Virus record (IMG/VR): IMGVR_UViG_3300036715_002535
Location: 1 to 64,000 of that record
DNA from: a virus
Reading direction: 5' to 3' (one strand)
Length of the DNA stretch: 64,000 nt
The number at the start of each line of letters is the position of its first letter. Positions within the stretch are counted from its first letter, which is position 1. Below the pieces are notes generated by a model. It was not told the DNA's origin. It saw only the letters and a program-made list of their open reading frames with translations, and did no database searches. Below are positions 2,182 through 58,530 of this stretch, in pieces. The position numbers and the translations under genes are program-made.

Positions 2182-2687
2182 TTTGTGACTCTCAATTTGA
2201 TCTTGATAGAGGATCTATGTAGACCGCTTTCCTTCTCTTTCAACCACTCTTCGAACCGGGGAACTGTCACATAGTCCGGGGCAACTTCTAAAAGTCGCTC
2301 CCATTCTTCCCGATCTCGCTCGAGTTGCGTTTTACGATTACGCTCAGAGATCATCCAACGTGTACCATTCTGGGTAATGTAACCTGCGGAGACCAATTCT
2401 TCCAGGGCCTCGAGGATCTCTGGATCCTGGTTGTCCTCGCCATCGATGTTGAGAAGGTGTTGAATCTCCTCTAGTCGCATGCCTTCACTCTTCAGGAGCT
2501 TGGGAATCTTGCGGATCAGATCTGGAATGTCTGAATAAGTTGTCGTACCAGCCTTAGCCATAATTCCTCCCGGTGGGGGTGGCACCTTCTGTGCCAACTC
2601 GAAAGTAGGAATCACCTCTTCCGTCAACGCCTTGGTGGGGTCGATCGGAATAATATAGGTGGGCCTTGTCTTGACGAAGATTTTCAC
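2178..2687 (-). CDS. Hypothetical protein (169 aa), winged-helix-like middle
   Basis: Not recognised. It begins with MKIFVKTRPT, a variant of the MK-hydrophobic N-terminus shared by several small proteins of this window. Residues 60-115 (PDLIRKIPKLLKSEGM, then LEALEELVSAGYITQNGTRW) look like a helix-turn-helix/wing arrangement. The C-terminus is charged and helical. The start overlaps the upstream stop by ATGA (2687-2684), so it is translationally coupled to 2684-3037. Confidence 0.6.
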   Translation of the reverse strand: MKIFVKTRPTYIIPIDPTKALTEEVIPTFELAQKVPPPPGGIMAKAGTTTYSDIPDLIRKIPKLLKSEGMRLEEIQHLLNIDGEDNQDPEILEALEELVSAGYITQNGTRWMISERNRKTQLERDREEWERLLEVAPDYVTVPRFEEWLKEKESGLHRSSIKIKLRVTK

Positions 2688-3037
2688 AGGTTGCGTCCGT
2701 GATGGTCACTACCACGTGCCCACTCATGGGCAGGTACATCTTCGTAGTCATGAGAGTTTTCATTCAGGAAGGCAACATAGTCGCCGGATGTCTTGCAGAG
2801 AATGCCTTCTTCAAGTTCCTGATCGAAGTGACCGAAGATGTCGGCATCCTCTTCGTTTGGTACTCCTTCGATTGCGTAGACAGTTAGATCATCATCGGCG
2901 CTAGGACCATTCTCAGCCACGAACATTGAAGTTTTCAGGCCACGTGCCAAAACTGCCTGCTTCCAAGATTTGTAGTCCTGGAAGGTTTCGCGGTCATTCG
3001 CTCGTCTCCAGAGATTGGCGGTTACACGGAGCTTCAT
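2684..3037 (-). CDS. Hypothetical protein (117 aa) with MKLRVTA N-terminus
   Basis: Not recognised. It starts at ATG 3037 with a strong GGGAGGTGATCT ribosome site just upstream. The N-terminus MKLRVTANLWRRAND belongs to the recurrent MK-[LF]-x-[IV]-x-A family of starts in this window. The remainder is acidic. It is the first gene of the leftward operon and is divergent from the terminase; the 46 bases between them (3038-3083) must hold both promoters. Confidence 0.6.
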   Translation of the reverse strand: MKLRVTANLWRRANDRETFQDYKSWKQAVLARGLKTSMFVAENGPSADDDLTVYAIEGVPNEEDADIFGHFDQELEEGILCKTSGDYVAFLNENSHDYEDVPAHEWARGSDHHGRNL

Positions 3038-29931: not shown

Positions 29932-30315
29932 GTGACTGAACGTTTCAAACTGACTGGCAATGCCCAGATCGATGCGGATCACGATGAGATCTTCAAACTG
30001 TACGATGAGTACGTGGTGTTAGTGCAAGAAGGAAATTACGAGGAGATCAAGAGGGTATTCTACGAGCTCCTCGAATACCTAACTTTCCACTTTATAAGAG
30101 AAGAGGAATTGATGACCCTCATCTCCTACCCAGACATCTCAGATCATCGGCAACATCATTTTCAAATGCAAGAGATTTATCTGTCTCTTGTTCAGCCAGT
30201 TCTGAGTGGGAAAGAAACTAATGCTGAAGTACAAAAGTTCATGGAGCTGCTGAAATCCCACATCGAAAAGCAGGATTCGAAGATTTCAGAGTTCATAGAA
30301 GAACGAAACAAGTAG
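29932..30315 (+). CDS. Bacteriohemerythrin (127 aa)
   Basis: A four-helix O2-binding di-iron protein. All seven usual iron ligands are present: His17 (in DADHDEI), His53 and Glu57 (HFIRE), His72 and His76 (HRQHH), His110 and Asp115 (HIEKQD). The length equals a single-domain hemerythrin, with no attached signalling domain. GTG start with AAGGGTG upstream. The family binds O2 reversibly and may also handle NO or iron. A second, divergent copy is at 58141-58530. Confidence 0.9.
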   Translation: MTERFKLTGNAQIDADHDEIFKLYDEYVVLVQEGNYEEIKRVFYELLEYLTFHFIREEELMTLISYPDISDHRQHHFQMQEIYLSLVQPVLSGKETNAEVQKFMELLKSHIEKQDSKISEFIEERNK

Positions 30316-34129: not shown

Positions 34130-35530
34130 ATGGTGAAATTAGAGAACGTCCAACCAGTCCTTGAAGCCATCCGGAACGCGGGTGGCATTCCTATGATCGT
34201 TGGCGGATTCGTTCGCGACCACGTGCTTGGAATAGACTCCAAAGACATCGATATCGAGGTTTACAAAATGACCTCGGACCAGCTTGCCGCCGTTTTAAGC
34301 CGGCATGGGAAGTCGGAAACCGTTGGTGCCTCATATGGGGTCATGAAGCTTTGGATGGATGGGCAGGACTACGACTTCACCCTTCCTCGGCGCGACAACA
34401 AGTGTGGTAGGAACCACAAGGACTTCACGGTCGAGATCGATCCAAATATGACATTCGAGGAGGCAGCTTCTCGACGGGACTTTACCTTCAATTCAATCTC
34501 CATGTGCCCCTTTGCCATGCGGGTCGAAGATCCTTTCAATGGCCTGGAGGATTTGGAGAAGGGTCTCATCCGTCATACTTCCATGGCCTTCGTTGAGGAC
34601 CCTCTTCGGGTTCTTCGTGGCATGCAGTTTGCTGGTCGGTTCGATTTCGAGGTGACTTCTGAAACTTCGAAACTCTGCCAGTCCATGTTCGATACCTACG
34701 ACGCTCTTGCCAAGGAGCGGGTGTGGGTCGAATGGGAAAAGTGGGCGACCAAGTCCATCAAGCCTTCCGCTGGAATTCGCTTCCTTGATCAGACTGGCTG
34801 GTTGAAGCACTTCCCTCAGATCGAAGCGCTCAAGGGTATCCCGCAGGATCCCATCTGGCACCCTGAAGGCGATGTCTTTGTGCACACCATGCACGTTGTG
34901 GATGCTGCAGCTCAGATCGCAAAGGACTTCGTTCCGGAAGAGCGCCTCATCACAGTCATGGCGGCTCTCTGCCACGACTTTGGAAAGGTCACCAACACCG
35001 CCTACTTCGGCAAGTTCTCAACCCGCGCTGATGGCACCCAGTTTGAGGTCGAAGGACCTCGTTTCCGTAGTCATGGGCACGAAGCTGCCGGTGAGGATCC
35101 CACTAAGGTGTTCCTCGAAGGTATCGGCGCTCCTCAGCACCTCATCGCAAAGATCGTCCCCCTCGTTACCAACCATCTGGCTCACTGCACCTTCCAAGGT
35201 GAAGCGCCTACTCCTCGGTCTGTTCGCCGGTTGGCCGTTCGACTTCATCCGGCTACCATCGATCAGCTCATCCCTGTCATCCACGCGGATGCCGCTGGGC
35301 GTCCACCCCTTTCGCAGGAACTCCCTACTACGGCAGTCCAGCTCCAGGAGATGGCAAAGCATGTAAGGGTCGCAGATGGTCAGCCGAAGCCGATCGTGAT
35401 GGGACGAGATCTCATCAAGGCCGGTATCAGGCCTGGACCTGAAATGGGACAGATCCTCTCCAAGTTGTACGAGTTGCAGCTTGATGGTGCCTTCGATAAC
35501 GTAGAAGACGGACTGACCTACGTTAAATAA
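34130..35530 (+). CDS. CCA-adding/poly(A) polymerase-like nucleotidyltransferase with HD domain (466 aa)
   Basis: The N-terminal nucleotidyltransferase has GGFVRDHVLG and DIDIEVY (metal-binding DxD), then RRDFTFNSI and EDPLRVLRGMQFAGRF, all class II tRNA nucleotidyltransferase motifs. The C-terminal part carries an HD phosphohydrolase motif (ALCHDFGKV). The overall size fits the multifunctional bacterial CCA enzyme. Role: repair or completion of tRNA 3' CCA ends, useful when host tRNAs are cleaved in defence. The ATG 34130 has no ribosome site and would be almost leaderless. Confidence 0.88.
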   Translation: MVKLENVQPVLEAIRNAGGIPMIVGGFVRDHVLGIDSKDIDIEVYKMTSDQLAAVLSRHGKSETVGASYGVMKLWMDGQDYDFTLPRRDNKCGRNHKDFTVEIDPNMTFEEAASRRDFTFNSISMCPFAMRVEDPFNGLEDLEKGLIRHTSMAFVEDPLRVLRGMQFAGRFDFEVTSETSKLCQSMFDTYDALAKERVWVEWEKWATKSIKPSAGIRFLDQTGWLKHFPQIEALKGIPQDPIWHPEGDVFVHTMHVVDAAAQIAKDFVPEERLITVMAALCHDFGKVTNTAYFGKFSTRADGTQFEVEGPRFRSHGHEAAGEDPTKVFLEGIGAPQHLIAKIVPLVTNHLAHCTFQGEAPTPRSVRRLAVRLHPATIDQLIPVIHADAAGRPPLSQELPTTAVQLQEMAKHVRVADGQPKPIVMGRDLIKAGIRPGPEMGQILSKLYELQLDGAFDNVEDGLTYVK

Positions 35531-45841: not shown

Positions 45842-46140
45842 TCTTCCTCCAGGATCTTGTACTCGACCAAAACTTTTCTGATCCTCGCAGCAAGATCTGG
45901 ATATAGAGAATCGAAGTCCCAGCACGTTATGAGAAACATTTGTATACTAAAGGATGGGTAAGTATCCAGAACCTTGAGGAATTCTTGAAAAGGGACTGCC
46001 TTCTCATTGAGTACTGCAAAGTGCTGGGCAATATCTAAAGCACACATTCTCGATCGATATACAAGATCGATTCTCCGGAGCATGATAGTACAGAGAACCA
46101 TTCCGATCAGGCAAAGAAAGAGAATCTTCTCTGAACTCAT
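45820..46140 (-). CDS. Membrane-anchored hypothetical protein (106 aa)
   Basis: Not recognised. The N-terminal segment ILFLCLIGMVLCTIMLRR is hydrophobic and ends with Arg. The rest is a soluble helical domain (FQEFLKVLDTYPSFSIQMFL). It overlaps the preceding gene by ATGA and the following small membrane gene by 22 bases. Confidence 0.6.
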   Translation of the reverse strand: MSSEKILFLCLIGMVLCTIMLRRIDLVYRSRMCALDIAQHFAVLNEKAVPFQEFLKVLDTYPSFSIQMFLITCWDFDSLYPDLAARIRKVLVEYKILEEECRTVSL

Positions 46141-46571
46141 TTCGCAGGCTCTGGGAAGATCAAACGCTGACCATCAGAGGTGATACCCGTCTCGTACCTT
46201 CTGGCCTGCAGCTTCTCGACCAGTTTCCGGTACCCTTCGTTGTCACCTTTTGCCATATCGCTAGCGGTATCGATGTCATCCAGCAGGCTGAAAAGAAATT
46301 CTGCCATCTCCTTGTGGGTCATCAAAGGGTTACCAGCAGGAGTGAAGAAGGTGACTCGAGCTGCCGAAGGTCTGGGAGGTGGTGGGCTTGGAAATTCCTT
46401 GATGAGAGCCTTGTTGAAGGATGGCCCGGCTTTTTCTTTACGTGCGAAAAGCAGTACGAATCCCTTTACTATGTTCGCGGACAAATCCACGCATGCAAGC
46501 GCTACCACGCAAGCAACGGGTGTTCCACAGAATGCGAACAGGTAAGGGTGTGCGAAAGCCCACGGAATCAT
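46137..46571 (-). CDS. Membrane-anchored hypothetical protein with Pro-rich linker (144 aa)
   Basis: Not recognised. Hydrophobic N-terminus (PYLFAFCGTPVACVVALACVDLSANIV), then a Pro-rich spacer (FPSPPPPRPSA), then a soluble C-terminal domain. Eight bases downstream of the radical SAM gene, in the same leftward operon. Confidence 0.6.
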   Translation of the reverse strand: MIPWAFAHPYLFAFCGTPVACVVALACVDLSANIVKGFVLLFARKEKAGPSFNKALIKEFPSPPPPRPSAARVTFFTPAGNPLMTHKEMAEFLFSLLDDIDTASDMAKGDNEGYRKLVEKLQARRYETGITSDGQRLIFPEPAK

Positions 46572-46579
46572 CGAATCTC

Positions 46580-48391
46580 CTAAGTAGAAAAGGGATCTGA
46601 CATTGGTATTGCTAAGGAGATAACCCGGTCTTTCTCTCTAAACATTAGTCCTAGATTTTCCAGTTTACGTAAAATTCCATCTACATCTCGGTAAGTAAAT
46701 CCATTCGAAAGAAGAATGGGATCCTCCGAAAGGCGGTCAAGTGAAACGATGTCCAAGCAGAGATGGTAGATGCGGCTTTCGTTTTCGTCCAAGGAGTACC
46801 GCGCGGATCTACCCGGTCTCTCATCCTCGACTACTACCTTCTCCCCAAGTCTGTAGTATCTTAGGAGCTTCTGTCCCTTCTTTTGCCGGTAGTTCTGGAT
46901 CCATTCCCTCACCACGCGAGTGAGTTCTAAACTGTAGGGTGCAGAATCAATCCCATCATAGTTGAACTTTGTCGCAATTCTATAGAGCTGTTCTCTATCA
47001 AGCGGGTACAGGAACTGGAAGATTGGTTCTGGATCTCGAATCACAATTCCATATTTCTCCGGGAAGTCGAAGAGCTGGGATCCCCTGGATAGGTAGTATT
47101 CGATCACACCATTCGGAGGATAGAGATGCTGAAGTTTGTAAGCTAGCTCGGCCATTCGCAGGTACTCAGTAGGATCCTCGGAATGGAATCCACGAATGAT
47201 GTTCCAAGTCAAAGGAATGTCCAACCACTTGCAGAACTTCAAAAATCGAACGTTCTGGATTGCTGAAACACCCTTAGAGATAAGCTCGAGGATGGGGGTA
47301 CTAAGACTTTCAATCCCTGGCTGAAGTACCCGCGCTCCGGCCCTCTTTAAAAGTTTCAGATCTTCTAGACCAGTGTTACTCTTGAGTTCGAAGAAGAGCT
47401 CTAGGTTGTACTTCGACTCAATCAACGATTCGAGAATCTTAGTCCCGTCCTTGTAATCGAGGATACTGTCGACTGCGTAGAACTTGTACACCCCATGCTG
47501 ATCTGCAAGACGAAGAACATCGGCTACAACCTTCTCCCAGTTCTTCCTTCGGTAAGGAGTAGTGAAGACATCTTCCGCACAGAATGTGCAAGGGTGCTTG
47601 AAACCCCACCAGCAACCACGACCGGTCTCGTACTGAATGTATACGTCCCGCTTGACCTCATCCAGTTTCAACCTATCGATACGTTCAAAGAACTCCTCGT
47701 GATTGGGATCCTCGAATTGATCACCCTCGACCTTGTTCGACAGGTCTGCAAAGTAGATTCCAAGATCCGAACGAATGGACGCACAGGGATGAGAGGTCAA
47801 ACCTGCCTGCAACCCCTTTACGAACTCCGGTAGAGCTACCTCAGCATCACCATGCCAGATCGCATCCAACCATCCGAAGTTTTCAAGTAGGGCTTCTCCT
47901 ACACCATGGACAAGTCCCGGTCCACCAAAGATGACCTTGATACGAGGATTCAGCTCTTTGATTCTCTTCGCCAGAACCAGGGAAGCAACGAACTGAGCAA
48001 GCACTATTGTGAAGCCCACAATCTTAGGATTTGATTCTACGATCTCAAGAGCCAGCTTCTCCACGAATTCCGGGGTTGCCGCTTTGATGTCGAAGTACAG
48101 ATCAGGAAGAATCTGCTGAAGGGTCTCAGAGTCGTCTATCCCTTTGAAGGTGGGGTTAGTGAAGACCCACTCCGCGTACTCCATGCTCTGACTGATCTCT
48201 AGGTACTGTAGCCTACTGGTTACAAGCTTTCGTTCGTACAGGAAAGAGTAGTAATCCAGGTTCGCGGAAAGAGACCCAACCTTGAGACCCGCTTTACTTA
48301 GAACGGTATGAACGATTCCAAGTTGAATACTTGGGTCCAGAGTAACCCACGGCATCGAAACCGTTAGGAAATCTAGATCCTTTGGGATCAT
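46580..48391 (-). CDS. Radical SAM protein of RiPP-maturation type (603 aa)
   Basis: Residues 1-200 resemble a B12-binding (Rossmann-like) domain, with IVGFTIVLAQFVASLVLA and VIFGGPGLVHGVGE. The radical SAM core begins at YETGRGCWWGFKHPCTFC: Cys260, Cys268 and Cys271 in a CX7CX2C arrangement, the unusual cluster motif of the RiPP-maturation radical SAM protein 1 group (TIGR03975-type). Later motifs ARVLQPGIESL and WNIIRGFHSEDP also fit. The C-terminal 150 residues may bind a peptide. TAATG overlap with the Cys-rich gene upstream. Confidence 0.75.
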   Translation of the reverse strand: MIPKDLDFLTVSMPWVTLDPSIQLGIVHTVLSKAGLKVGSLSANLDYYSFLYERKLVTSRLQYLEISQSMEYAEWVFTNPTFKGIDDSETLQQILPDLYFDIKAATPEFVEKLALEIVESNPKIVGFTIVLAQFVASLVLAKRIKELNPRIKVIFGGPGLVHGVGEALLENFGWLDAIWHGDAEVALPEFVKGLQAGLTSHPCASIRSDLGIYFADLSNKVEGDQFEDPNHEEFFERIDRLKLDEVKRDVYIQYETGRGCWWGFKHPCTFCAEDVFTTPYRRKNWEKVVADVLRLADQHGVYKFYAVDSILDYKDGTKILESLIESKYNLELFFELKSNTGLEDLKLLKRAGARVLQPGIESLSTPILELISKGVSAIQNVRFLKFCKWLDIPLTWNIIRGFHSEDPTEYLRMAELAYKLQHLYPPNGVIEYYLSRGSQLFDFPEKYGIVIRDPEPIFQFLYPLDREQLYRIATKFNYDGIDSAPYSLELTRVVREWIQNYRQKKGQKLLRYYRLGEKVVVEDERPGRSARYSLDENESRIYHLCLDIVSLDRLSEDPILLSNGFTYRDVDGILRKLENLGLMFREKDRVISLAIPMSDPFST

Positions 48392-48612
48392 TAGTAATCC
48401 TCGGATGGACCTATTGAAGGATGACCACCGAACTCAATAGTCGTTCCACCCTTTGGTTTGATGTCGGGGAACCGGTGTCGAAAGACTTCTGGAATTGCTA
48501 CAAGCCGTTCAATACACTCAAAGCAAAGAAGGGCATGGCGCTCCGCGTCTCCGATCAAAACGACCCGAGACTCCTGATGGCACTCACTGCACCAACCTTC
48601 AGTTACTCTCAA
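48391..48612 (-). CDS. Cys-rich small protein coupled to the radical SAM gene (73 aa)
   Basis: TTG 48612. Two CxxC pairs: WCSECHQ (Cys8, Cys11) and LLCFECIE (Cys30, Cys33), a treble-clef-like zinc site. The C-terminus is Gly/Pro rich (KPKGGTTIEFGGHPSIGP). The stop and the radical SAM ATG overlap (TAATG), so it is stoichiometrically co-made. It could be a partner, recognition module or substrate of the enzyme; not proven. Confidence 0.65.
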   Translation of the reverse strand: MRVTEGWCSECHQESRVVLIGDAERHALLCFECIERLVAIPEVFRHRFPDIKPKGGTTIEFGGHPSIGPSEDY

Positions 48613-48830
48613 TCAACAATCCTTCTACTGGAAGCAATCTCGTGATGAATGGACCTCCACGCATTACCAAAGTTTACGAGCAGTTCTTCAAGTCTACCTT
48701 GCCGAACCCACCACATTTTGAAGTCGTCTTCTGTGAGGGGTACATCGTTCTGAATGATTGTACGTTGATTGATTACCTCTGACTGAATAGGTTGGAAGCG
48801 ATCCTGAGAATCTTTCCCAGAGCGCCTCAC
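48609..48830 (-). CDS. Hypothetical protein (73 aa)
   Basis: Not recognised. GTG 48830. N-terminus basic and hydrophilic, then PLTEDDFKMWWVRQGRLEELL, helical. Its TGA overlaps the TTG of the Cys-rich gene. Confidence 0.55.
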   Translation of the reverse strand: MRRSGKDSQDRFQPIQSEVINQRTIIQNDVPLTEDDFKMWWVRQGRLEELLVNFGNAWRSIHHEIASSRRIVD

Positions 48831-48841
48831 GACCCTCGATC

Positions 48842-49135
48842 TTATATTCGGCCATTGTTGGGCTCGAGTTCTAAGTTGAGGACTCCAGTGACCGGAAGAC
48901 CCTTCCGAACCGCTTTACGATTGGCACGACGCTCTTCAGCACGCTGGCGCCTACGCTCCTGACGGTTGCCCTGATAGTGATCCAAGGGAACACGACGGGA
49001 CAGGACATGACCTTCGATCTTTAGTTCCTCAAGTCTTGCATCCATGGCTTCCCGAAGGGCGGTTTCGTTCGCAGCGTGAAAGACTTCCTGAAGGACCTTC
49101 TGTCCTTCAGTTGTGGTGTAGTGTGTCTCTTGCAT
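48842..49135 (-). CDS. Hypothetical basic helical protein (97 aa)
   Basis: Not recognised. Helical first half (VLQEVFHAANETALREAMDA), then a very basic segment (RQERRRQRAEERRANRKAVR) that may bind RNA or DNA, then a short strand. The ATG overlaps the preceding stop (TAATG). Confidence 0.6.
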   Translation of the reverse strand: MQETHYTTTEGQKVLQEVFHAANETALREAMDARLEELKIEGHVLSRRVPLDHYQGNRQERRRQRAEERRANRKAVRKGLPVTGVLNLELEPNNGRI

Positions 49136-49887: not shown

Positions 49888-50542
49888 TTACTTTCCTTTC
49901 AACCAAGAATCAAGAGGAAATTTCTGTCCTGTACGATGATCCAGGATAAGATTGTCCTGAAACCGGTAAGTTCGGATCTTGTCTCCCCTTTGCCCAGAGC
50001 CAATCTTGTCTTTTCGTTCTCGATTGATGTCTGCGTGAGCATTATTCTTTACCAGCTCCTGAAGTTTCATCTCCAACAGCTCCAATGCAACTACACGATT
50101 CCGGATCTGAGACCTGCCATCGATCCGGACTTGAAGACCGGTCGGCTTGTGGGTCGCAATAACACAGGATTCTACCTTGTTGCGGTGCTGCCCTCCAGGA
50201 CCACTGCCCCGGGTAGTTCTAACGTCTATATCCCGCAAATTTAAAGATGCCGCGCGGTTCTGGAGCTCATAACAGGCCACGGTTATGGTAGAGGTGTGAA
50301 CTCTACCCTTCTTCTCTGTAGGTGGAATACGCTGGAAGCGATGTCCTCCACTCCCTTGAAGAAATTCACCGGCGCTATCACCCTTGATGAGAAGGGAAGC
50401 GAAGCCAGGCGCCTCTTCTAAGAGTTCGGTCTCAAAGTCCCCTCCGCTCCGTCCGACGTAAATAGGCTTTCAGTTGATCCCTGACGAGTAGGACTGCATC
50501 GTCCCCACCCTCAGCAGCTCGAATCTCAAGAATGAGTTCCAT
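49888..50542 (-). CDS. Peptide chain release factor-like protein, expressed by apparent +1 frameshift (217 aa)
   Basis: ATG 50542 with AAGGAGGTG four bases upstream reads MELILEIRAAEGGDDAVLL up to Leu36, then TGA (50434-50432). In the +1 frame the protein goes on without missing residues as ETELLEEAPGF, then PPTEKKGRVHTS, the peptidyl-hydrolase loop GSGPGGQHRN, and GSGQRGDKIRTYRFQDN. This aligns with class I release factors (RGFKTEIIEES region of RF2). Domain 1 is absent. The codon-recognition site resembles RF1 (P-x-T). The break carries the prfB signal (see next entry). First gene of the operon down to 45604. Confidence 0.85.
50432..50445 (-). promoter_or_regulatory. prfB-like +1 recoding signal
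   Basis: On the minus strand: GGAGG (50445-50441), spacer GGA, then CTT (50437-50435) and TGA (50434-50432) followed by G. Bacterial RF2 genes use an internal Shine-Dalgarno three bases before CUU-UGA to shift +1. Here the next base is G instead of the usual C. The position is in the middle of a conserved domain-2 helix instead of codon 26. Confidence 0.8.
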
Positions 50543-55697: not shown

Positions 55698-56366
55698 TTG
55701 GCAAAGGCAGTCGTTATCCTATCCGGCGGAATGGACTCAGTCGTTCTAGCCTACTTCCTCAAGAACCAAGGCTACGAACTCAGTTGCCTGTCGTTCAACT
55801 ACGGTCAGCGCCACGCGAAGGAACTCGGGTTCGCGGAGCAGTGCGCGAAGGATGTCCGGTCCCCTTGGCACCTGGTCGATCTCAGCACCATCCAGGGTCT
55901 TCTGCCTGGTTCATCTCTCACTGACAGCTCGATCGAGGTTCCCGAAGGGCACTTCGAAGCGGAGATCATGAAGGCCACGGTAGTGCCCAATCGGAATGCG
56001 ATCATGCTTTCGATTGCGTGGGGCCACGCAGTTGCCATCGGAGCGGATGTGGTAGCCTTTGGCGCTCACGCGGGTGACCATGCTATCTACCCTGATTGCC
56101 GTCCAGAGTTCTGGGAGAAGATCGAAGCCGGGTTCAAGTCTGGCAACGAGGGCTTTGGCAATCCAGAACTTCGACTGTACCCACCTTTCATCAAGATCAC
56201 CAAGGCGGATATCACCAAGCGTGGGTACGATCTGGGTGTCAACTACGCGTACACCTGGAGCTGCTACAAGGGTGGGGAGAAGCACTGTGGCAAGTGTGGA
56301 ACTTGCGTGGAGCGGAAGGAAGCCTTCGAGCTGGCAGGTGTTCCTGACCCAACGGTGTACGAATGA
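55698..56366 (+). CDS. queC: 7-cyano-7-deazaguanine synthase
   Basis: Converts CDG to preQ0 using ATP and ammonia. The ATP pyrophosphatase loop is LSGGMDSVVLA (residues 8-18). Zinc ligands near the C-terminus: WSCYKGGEKHCGKCGTC (about residues 189-205). Internal FNYGQRHAKE and VPNRNAIML match QueC. Length 222 is normal. TTG 55698 has AGGAGAG upstream. In phages this pathway feeds 7-deazaguanine DNA modification that blocks restriction. No queD, queE or folE was seen in this window. Confidence 0.95.
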   Translation: MAKAVVILSGGMDSVVLAYFLKNQGYELSCLSFNYGQRHAKELGFAEQCAKDVRSPWHLVDLSTIQGLLPGSSLTDSSIEVPEGHFEAEIMKATVVPNRNAIMLSIAWGHAVAIGADVVAFGAHAGDHAIYPDCRPEFWEKIEAGFKSGNEGFGNPELRLYPPFIKITKADITKRGYDLGVNYAYTWSCYKGGEKHCGKCGTCVERKEAFELAGVPDPTVYE

Positions 56367-58140: not shown

Positions 58141-58530
58141 ATGGCTTTTATAGATTGGAATGACCGTTTTAGTGTAGGTCATGCTGAGATCGACAAACAG
58201 CACAAGAAACTCTTTAAGCTGGTCAACAACGTAGCTGACCTGGTGAAGATGGGAATTACTCCGGAACTGAAGAAAATTATCGCGGATCTTACCTCGTACA
58301 CCCTGGAGCACTTTCGTTTCGAAGAAAAGGTCATGCGGGATTCCGGCTACAAGGATCTCGCATCGCACATAAAGAAGCATGAAGATCTTGTCAAGGAAGT
58401 CTCGGCCCTACAGCTCAAACTCAAAGCCGGTGAGCGTGTGAGCATGATGTCCGTAACAAGATTCCTAGCGGATTGGCTGACGAACCACATCATGAAAGAA
58501 GATATGGAGTACAAGCCTTTCCTGAAATAG
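58141..58530 (+). CDS. Bacteriohemerythrin (129 aa)
   Basis: Textbook single-domain form: FIDWNDRFSVG at the N-terminus; iron ligands His21 (DKQHK), His57 and Glu61 (HFRFE), His76 and His80 (HIKKH), His116 and Asp121 (HIMKED). ATG 58141 with GGGGG upstream. It binds O2 at a di-iron centre. It differs strongly from the copy at 29932-30315, so the two were probably gained separately. Confidence 0.95.
   Translation: MAFIDWNDRFSVGHAEIDKQHKKLFKLVNNVADLVKMGITPELKKIIADLTSYTLEHFRFEEKVMRDSGYKDLASHIKKHEDLVKEVSALQLKLKAGERVSMMSVTRFLADWLTNHIMKEDMEYKPFLK

What the first reader, a model, noticed from the sequence alone, without database searches (positions are those of the whole stretch)
46580..48612. Phage radical SAM enzyme with CX7CX2C motif and coupled candidate substrate or partner
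The CWWGFKHPCTFC segment has the unusual CX7CX2C spacing of RiPP-maturation radical SAM protein 1 (TIGR03975 type) together with an N-terminal cobalamin-like domain. The upstream 73-residue protein overlaps its start (TAATG), has two CxxC pairs and a Gly-rich tail (KPKGGTTIEFGGHPSIGP), as expected of either a peptide-binding adaptor or a precursor with a cleavable core. A RiPP system in a phage would be new to me.
Basis: partly seen in the sequence, partly recalled or inferred. Interest (0 to 1): 0.8.

Follow-up and report, generated by a model that had tools for sequence, protein, structure and literature searches.

The report
Phage vitamin-B12 radical enzyme, substrate unknown
A large bacterial virus carries an intact gene for a vitamin-B12-dependent radical enzyme of the family that bacteria use to methylate ribosomally made peptides, complete with a peptide-gripping end domain; no other catalogued virus searched has one, but what it modifies is not known and the small neighbouring protein is only a candidate.

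Summary
The 603-aa ORF is a B12-dependent radical SAM enzyme. It scores 431 bits against TIGR03975 (cut-off 281.85), far above every rival profile, and CX7CX2C is the family's own spacing. The confident model (pLDDT 90.9) has a cobalamin domain and a radical SAM barrel like TokK, TsrM, OxsB and CysS. It should therefore grip its own peptide substrate and needs no separate adaptor. No relative was found among 50,697 phage records or 2.9 million viral contigs. It is diverged: the near-invariant CGLN after the last cluster cysteine reads CAED. The 73-aa protein is a real, coupled gene: an apparent small zinc-binding fold plus a disordered Gly-rich tail. It has no relatives, and no RiPP precursor family was recognised among the record's small ORFs. 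Enzyme identity is well supported, a peptide substrate is likely, and the 73-aa protein as substrate is possible but unproven.

The parts
46580..48391 (-). B12-dependent radical SAM enzyme, TIGR03975 (rSAM_ocin_1) family, 603 aa, intact
   Evidence: TIGR03975 431 bits, residues 11-595 of 603; AF2 model pLDDT 90.9; no internal stops
47792..48379 (-). Cobalamin-binding Rossmann-like domain, residues about 5-200
   Evidence: PF02310 at residues 106-190; VIA-align to OxsB/TokK/TsrM from residue 5
47072..47644 (-). Radical SAM barrel, residues about 250-440
   Evidence: PF04055 2e-10, residues 255-416; Foldseek
47579..47614 (-). [4Fe-4S]-binding motif C260-X7-C268-X2-C271 (CWWGFKHPCTFC), followed by AED where relatives have GLN
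46601..46879 (-). C-terminal PqqD/RRE-like domain, residues 505-597
   Evidence: profile-profile match to PqqD 97.6%, E 3.7e-12, with controls
48391..48612 (-). 73-aa small protein with two CxxC pairs, translationally coupled to the enzyme; candidate substrate or unrelated neighbour
   Evidence: ORF and SD; model pLDDT 69.8, residues 1-53 ordered; no relatives
48394..48453 (-). Predicted disordered Gly-rich tail of the 73-aa protein (residues 54-73); putative core if it is a precursor
   Evidence: pLDDT under 50 for residues 54-73
48609..48830 (-). 73-aa ORF (GTG) upstream, overlapping the small gene's start by 4 bases; unknown function
48842..49135 (-). 97-aa ORF in the same gene run; unknown function
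46137..46571 (-). 144-aa ORF downstream of the enzyme with a hydrophobic N-terminal stretch (seen in the sequence); unknown function
49888..50542 (-). Peptide-chain release factor gene at the head of the same gene run, read across an apparent +1 frameshift site
   Evidence: PF00472 2e-24

Best explanation
A large tailed phage encodes a cobalamin-dependent radical SAM enzyme of the TIGR03975 RiPP C-methyltransferase family. Shown by sequence and structure comparison: a cobalamin domain, a radical SAM barrel with a CX7CX2C cluster site, and a fused C-terminal PqqD-like domain. Inferred from the family: the C-terminal domain grips a leader segment of a peptide or small protein, SAM cleavage abstracts a hydrogen from a nearby residue, and methylcobalamin delivers a methyl group to that carbon. 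The substrate is most likely a small phage-encoded peptide or protein. The 73-aa zinc-type protein with a disordered tail, whose gene is translationally coupled to the enzyme, is the best single candidate, but that last step is a guess (about 0.2).
For: TIGR03975 431 bits against a 281.85 cut-off, with the next profile at 63. The phage protein keeps 58 of 72 near-invariant family positions, all cluster cysteines among them. Model pLDDT 90.9; top folds TokK, TsrM, OxsB, CysS and MgmA, all cobalamin radical SAM enzymes, with Z 18.9-22.1 against about 15-16 for MiaB/RimO. PqqD-like C-terminus with controls. Annotated cellular relatives sit beside RiPP precursors, epimerases and NHLP exporters. 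Precursor families are recognised beside L054 (Nif11) and L027 (Os1348), and the nearest relative L014 has a 14-residue-repeat ORF 48 bases downstream.
Against: No recognisable precursor, and no peptidase or exporter was identified in the parts annotated (the larger genes were not all scanned). The near-invariant GLN after the cluster motif is lost (AED) and the phage sequence has the longest branch of the tree (2.05), so chemistry or substrate may have changed. Many cellular members, such as the Nitrospinota/Nitrospirota clade, have no obvious precursor either, so family membership does not by itself prove a RiPP substrate. The catalytic outcome is inherited by analogy; nothing was measured.
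Confidence: 0.62

Rival explanations
1. The 73-aa protein is itself the substrate: its zinc-type domain (residues 1-53) acts as a folded leader and the enzyme modifies the 20-residue Gly-rich tail, a phage-made modified peptide or protein.
For: Translational coupling TAATG with SD sequences. Predicted ordered domain plus disordered tail. Cellular precursors beside relatives also join a leader part to Gly-rich or repeated C-terminal parts (L041, L060, L014).
Against: No similarity to any precursor. One gene among about ten packed in the same run. No peptidase found. Single-sequence model only (pLDDT 69.8).
Confidence: 0.2
2. The enzyme modifies a phage or host protein rather than a small excised peptide, for example one of translation or of the virion, as MgmA C-methylates methyl-coenzyme M reductase.
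For: MgmA is among the closest solved folds. No RiPP accessory genes seen. A release factor gene heads the same run of genes.
Against: The sequence profile places it with RiPP enzymes far above MgmA-type profiles (TIGR04014 27 bits). The PqqD-like domain points to leader-type recognition.
Confidence: 0.25
3. The 73-aa protein is a partner of the enzyme (adaptor or chaperone), not the substrate.
For: Coupled genes. Zinc-type folds often mediate protein contacts (general knowledge).
Against: The enzyme already carries an RRE-type domain. No comparable protein beside cellular relatives by sequence search.
Confidence: 0.15
4. The 73-aa protein is an unrelated neighbour, and the enzyme is a drifting acquisition of no lasting use to the phage.
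For: No other virus searched carries it. Family-typical residues lost at 14 of 72 positions against a cellular median of 2.
Against: Full-length intact frame with a good SD, all cluster cysteines kept, and GC near that of the phage (0.477 against 0.498), which does not suggest a recent foreign insertion.
Confidence: 0.15

Closest known systems
TIGR03975 rSAM_ocin_1, RiPP maturation radical SAM C-methyltransferase (for example the pheganomycin-type locus of Streptomyces globosus, L003)
   Same: Full-length profile match over the curated cut-off, CX7CX2C, cobalamin domain, PqqD-like C-terminus shared by the whole family alignment
   Different: Encoded by a phage; CGLN reads CAED; no recognisable precursor, epimerase or exporter beside it
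TsrM, TokK, CysS, OxsB, MgmA (solved cobalamin radical SAM enzymes)
   Same: Two-domain fold over residues about 5-508, Z 18.9-22.1
   Different: Only 10-17% identity; the matches end near residue 510, so the PqqD-like domain is not covered
PqqD / RiPP recognition element domains (PF05402)
   Same: C-terminal 93 residues align with PqqD over 74 columns
   Different: Fused to the enzyme; below detection by the Pfam profile in the phage protein itself
Biosynthetic gene clusters on phages (Dragos et al. 2021, cited in PMC11915812; PMC12360287)
   Same: A phage carrying an enzyme of peptide natural-product type
   Different: Here one enzyme of a B12 radical SAM family in a large tailed-phage record, without a recognisable cluster

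Membership tests
TIGR03975 rSAM_ocin_1 | Score over the curated cut-off of 281.85 bits across the full length | tested here: met
   431 bits, profile 4-606 of 606
TIGR03975 rSAM_ocin_1 | CX7CX2C cluster motif in an RGCWWG context | tested here: met
   RGCWWGFKHPCTFC
TIGR03975 rSAM_ocin_1 | GLN after the last cluster cysteine (near-invariant here, not a stated criterion of the model) | tested here: not met
   AED in the phage; GLN in 9 of 9 plasmid relatives found without using that motif
Cobalamin-dependent radical SAM methyltransferase | Cobalamin-binding domain plus radical SAM barrel | tested here: met
Cobalamin-dependent radical SAM methyltransferase | Cobalamin- and SAM-dependent methyl transfer to carbon | not testable with these tools
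   needs biochemistry
PqqD-like RRE domain | Profile similarity to PqqD beyond generic winged helices | tested here: met
   97.6% and E 3.7e-12 over 74 columns, against 86% MarR and 81% ArsR over about 50 columns; PqqD itself against MarR gives 91%
PqqD-like RRE domain | Binds a leader peptide as an added strand | not testable with these tools
   no co-folding or binding data
RiPP biosynthetic system | Recognisable precursor peptide gene in the locus | tested here: not met
   no NCBIfam precursor family among the 25 families shown (of 42) for 122 small ORFs of the record; the same library detected the precursors at L054 and L027. Unknown precursor types stay possible
RiPP biosynthetic system | Dedicated peptidase or exporter | tested here: inconclusive
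   none among genes scanned, but not all large genes of the record were scanned and the record may be a fragment
   BchE 41 bits against a cut-off of 481; MiaB not listed

The most novel reading that the evidence does not exclude
A large phage makes its own cobalamin-dependent, leader-guided carbon methylation of a phage-encoded small zinc-type protein (the 73-aa gene product or another operon protein): a virus-borne RiPP-style modification with a substrate class unlike known precursors, using an active site altered from the family's.
Probability: 0.2. Interest if true: 0.78.

Novelty: new variant of a known kind. Interest (0 to 1): 0.52.

Why it matters
TIGR03975 enzymes are known from bacterial chromosomes and plasmids. 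No phage record or viral contig searched here carries one. An intact, diverged copy with its own peptide-recognition domain in a large phage would mean that viruses can run B12-dependent peptide or protein methylation during infection, drawing on host cobalamin and SAM. It also gives a small, testable gene set in which to find an unusual substrate.

Tried and rejected
Relatives in viral contigs were sought with the protein, with the family alignment, with the nearest cellular relative and with a degenerate DNA signature of GCWWGx4CxFC; none confirmed. The signature hits 8 of the 9 plasmid loci, which were found without it. Records very near the window may be hidden by the tools. Phage records gave two other B12 radical SAM proteins (Streptomyces phage SF3 and a faecal fragment), but only at 24-25% identity to a cellular relative over about half its length, and not with the window protein as query. 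The PADLOC match PDC-M51A (1e-6) is partial and most likely reflects the shared cobalamin/radical SAM fold. Pfam did not name the C-terminal domain in the phage protein; only the family profile did. Fold search of the 73-aa model gave only weak hits to zinc-binding folds such as FusB, RING and PHD, none under E 0.1. By eye the CxxC spacing recalls the ClpX zinc domain, but Pfam did not report it, so this was dropped. VIA-align rows end near residue 510, so that search is silent on the last domain. The motif conservation in the 80 genome loci is partly by construction, because the retrieval patterns contained RGCWWG and CTFCGLN; the 9 plasmid loci are the unbiased check. One region fetch was made by mistake and not used.

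Full report
Observation. They share TAATG, and each has a Shine-Dalgarno-like sequence upstream. The enzyme frame has no internal stop. The CWWG-x4-CxFC DNA signature occurs once in the window and never in 100 shuffles. The two genes lie in a tightly packed minus-strand run of about ten genes from a release factor gene near 50542 down to 45820, several of them overlapping. Adjacency and coupling are therefore expected for most neighbours and are weak evidence of partnership.

What carries it. The window is the first 64 kb of a 111,836-base virus record. It has a terminase large subunit, portal, connector and tail-fibre proteins. Terminase and portal are about 30% identical to those of large phages such as Erwinia phages of the Alexandra kind, Rhizobium phage RHEph12, Pseudomonas phage PaBG and P. 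putida phages. The host is unknown. GC of the enzyme gene (0.477) is near that of the window (0.498), so it does not look like a recent GC-deviant insertion.

Enzyme identity. NCBIfam places it in TIGR03975, RiPP maturation radical SAM C-methyltransferase, at 431 bits over residues 11-595 against a cut-off of 281.85; the next profile scores 63 bits and BchE 41. Pfam finds the radical SAM domain and, just under its cut-off, the B12-binding domain; across 60 aligned members these hit 60 and 58. CX7CX2C is a general feature of the family, present in 9 plasmid relatives retrieved by protein similarity alone and in the genome loci, whose retrieval used that motif. The predicted structure is confident (mean pLDDT 90.9). 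Its best solved matches are TokK, TsrM, OxsB, CysS and MgmA; VIA-align Z is 18.9-22.1 for these against 15-16 for MiaB and RimO.

A fused peptide-recognition domain. Residues 505-597 form strands, helices and a final hairpin. I built a PqqD alignment from 32 PqqD-matching sequences fetched from the relatives' own genomes and compared it with this segment of the family alignment: probability 97.6%, E 3.7e-12 (for a single comparison), over 74 columns. Five other segments of the enzyme gave under 5%. Generic winged-helix controls built the same way gave 86% (MarR) and 81% (ArsR) over about 50 columns, while PqqD itself against MarR gives 91%. The phage sequence alone matches the cellular C-terminal profile at 99.1%, but PqqD only at 50%. 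The family, and by homology the phage enzyme, thus carries a PqqD-like domain of the kind that grips leader peptides. This is inference from homology; no binding was tested.

Relatives. No phage in INPHARED matches at 1e-5. No IMG/VR contig was confirmed by three protein-based scans or by the DNA signature; the signature finds 8 of 9 unbiased plasmid relatives. Near copies of the window may be hidden by the tools. PHROGs does hold a family of unknown function that matches (phrog_21079, 4e-55); its members could not be traced. In cells the family is broad: 523 of the pattern-matching stretches in genomes encode relatives. The tree groups the phage protein with an Acidobacteria MAG (L014, 36%) and Planctomycetota (SH-aLRT 95), but its branch is the longest (2.05) and its place is unsure.

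What relatives do. Annotated relatives sit beside a pheganomycin-type precursor, an Os1348 NHLP protein, an epimerase, or a Nif11 precursor with NHLP export genes. Among the genome loci, L054 has a Nif11 precursor and L027 an Os1348 one upstream. The nearest relative, L014, has an 86-aa ORF with three 14-residue repeats 48 bases downstream. Others, such as the Nitrospinota and Nitrospirota clade, show no obvious precursor, so the RiPP label is not proven for every branch.

Divergence. Of 72 positions conserved in at least 93% of the other members, the phage differs at 14; cellular members differ at a median of 2 and at most 10. Three of the 14 are consecutive: GLN directly after the last cluster cysteine reads AED. 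No other member examined loses all three. The residues lie next to the cluster site, so an altered substrate or reaction is plausible.

The 73-aa protein. No family in Pfam, NCBIfam, PHROGs or PADLOC reaches its cut-off; the weak hits are zinc fingers. No relative was found in phages, viral contigs or beside cellular relatives. A single-sequence model has an ordered part (residues 1-53, pLDDT about 80) and a disordered tail 54-73; fold search gives only weak zinc-fold hits. An ordered domain plus a short flexible Gly-rich tail is compatible with a leader and core, and also with an ordinary small phage zinc protein. Scanning 122 small proteins of the whole record against NCBIfam gave no RiPP precursor family among the 25 families shown of 42.

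Mechanism and confidence. Shown by comparison: family, three-domain build, cluster motif, coupling. Inferred from the family: leader gripping by the C-terminal domain, hydrogen abstraction, methyl transfer from methylcobalamin. Guess: the 73-aa protein as the substrate. I put 0.9 on the enzyme being a cobalamin radical SAM protein of this family, about 0.6 on a peptide or small-protein substrate, and 0.2 on the 73-aa protein being it.

Novelty. Phage-borne biosynthetic clusters have been reported (Dragos et al. 2021, known here only from reference lists in PMC11915812 and PMC10023795; PMC12360287), so a peptide-type enzyme in a phage is not new as a category. A TIGR03975 enzyme in a phage appears new in the collections searched, and its altered motif and lack of a recognisable precursor make it a variant.

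Noticed in passing
window 49888-50542 (-): A full-length release factor gene is split by frame: MELILEIRAAEGGDD...TERRGL ends at TGA and continues in the +1 frame to GSGPGGQHRNKVES. The junction GGAGG-GGA-CTT-TGA-G resembles the programmed +1 frameshift site of bacterial prfB (RF2; site recalled from general knowledge), which suggests an autoregulated phage release factor.
   Followed up: partly
window and rest of record (record coordinates): 2684-3037(-), 30973, 36100, 36486, 41158, 66353(-), 76729(-), 89510, 90412, 90936, 96331, 96809, 96994, 102744: At least 14 otherwise different proteins share an N-terminal M(V/G)KLRIxA-type leader; shuffled N-termini give 0.07 on average, at most 2. It is absent from the first 30 kb of RHEph12. 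It could be a capsid-targeting or other sorting leader; it could even be a leader for the enzyme's peptide-recognition domain, for which there is no evidence.
   Followed up: partly
window 29932-30315 (+) and 58141-58530 (+): Three small proteins of the record match bacteriohemerythrin models (best 3e-40); two probable ones, picked by sequence, are at these places. Oxygen-binding proteins in a phage look unusual.
   Followed up: no
window 34130-35530 (+): A CCA-adding tRNA nucleotidyltransferase is present although ARAGORN finds no tRNA gene in the window.
   Followed up: no
window 55698-56366 (+): QueC-like 7-deazaguanine synthesis protein.
   Followed up: no
L014:3332-3592: The nearest cellular relative has a candidate repeat-type precursor (three 42-nt repeats, VARIRQR motif) just downstream, matching no NCBIfam precursor family.
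   Followed up: partly
L065:5489-5899: A Nitrospirota relative also has small CxxC-type ORFs directly upstream of the enzyme; no match to the phage 73-aa protein by phmmer.
   Followed up: no
L028, L042, L052, L070, L072, L080: Several bacterial loci carry two copies of the TIGR03975 enzyme near each other.
   Followed up: no
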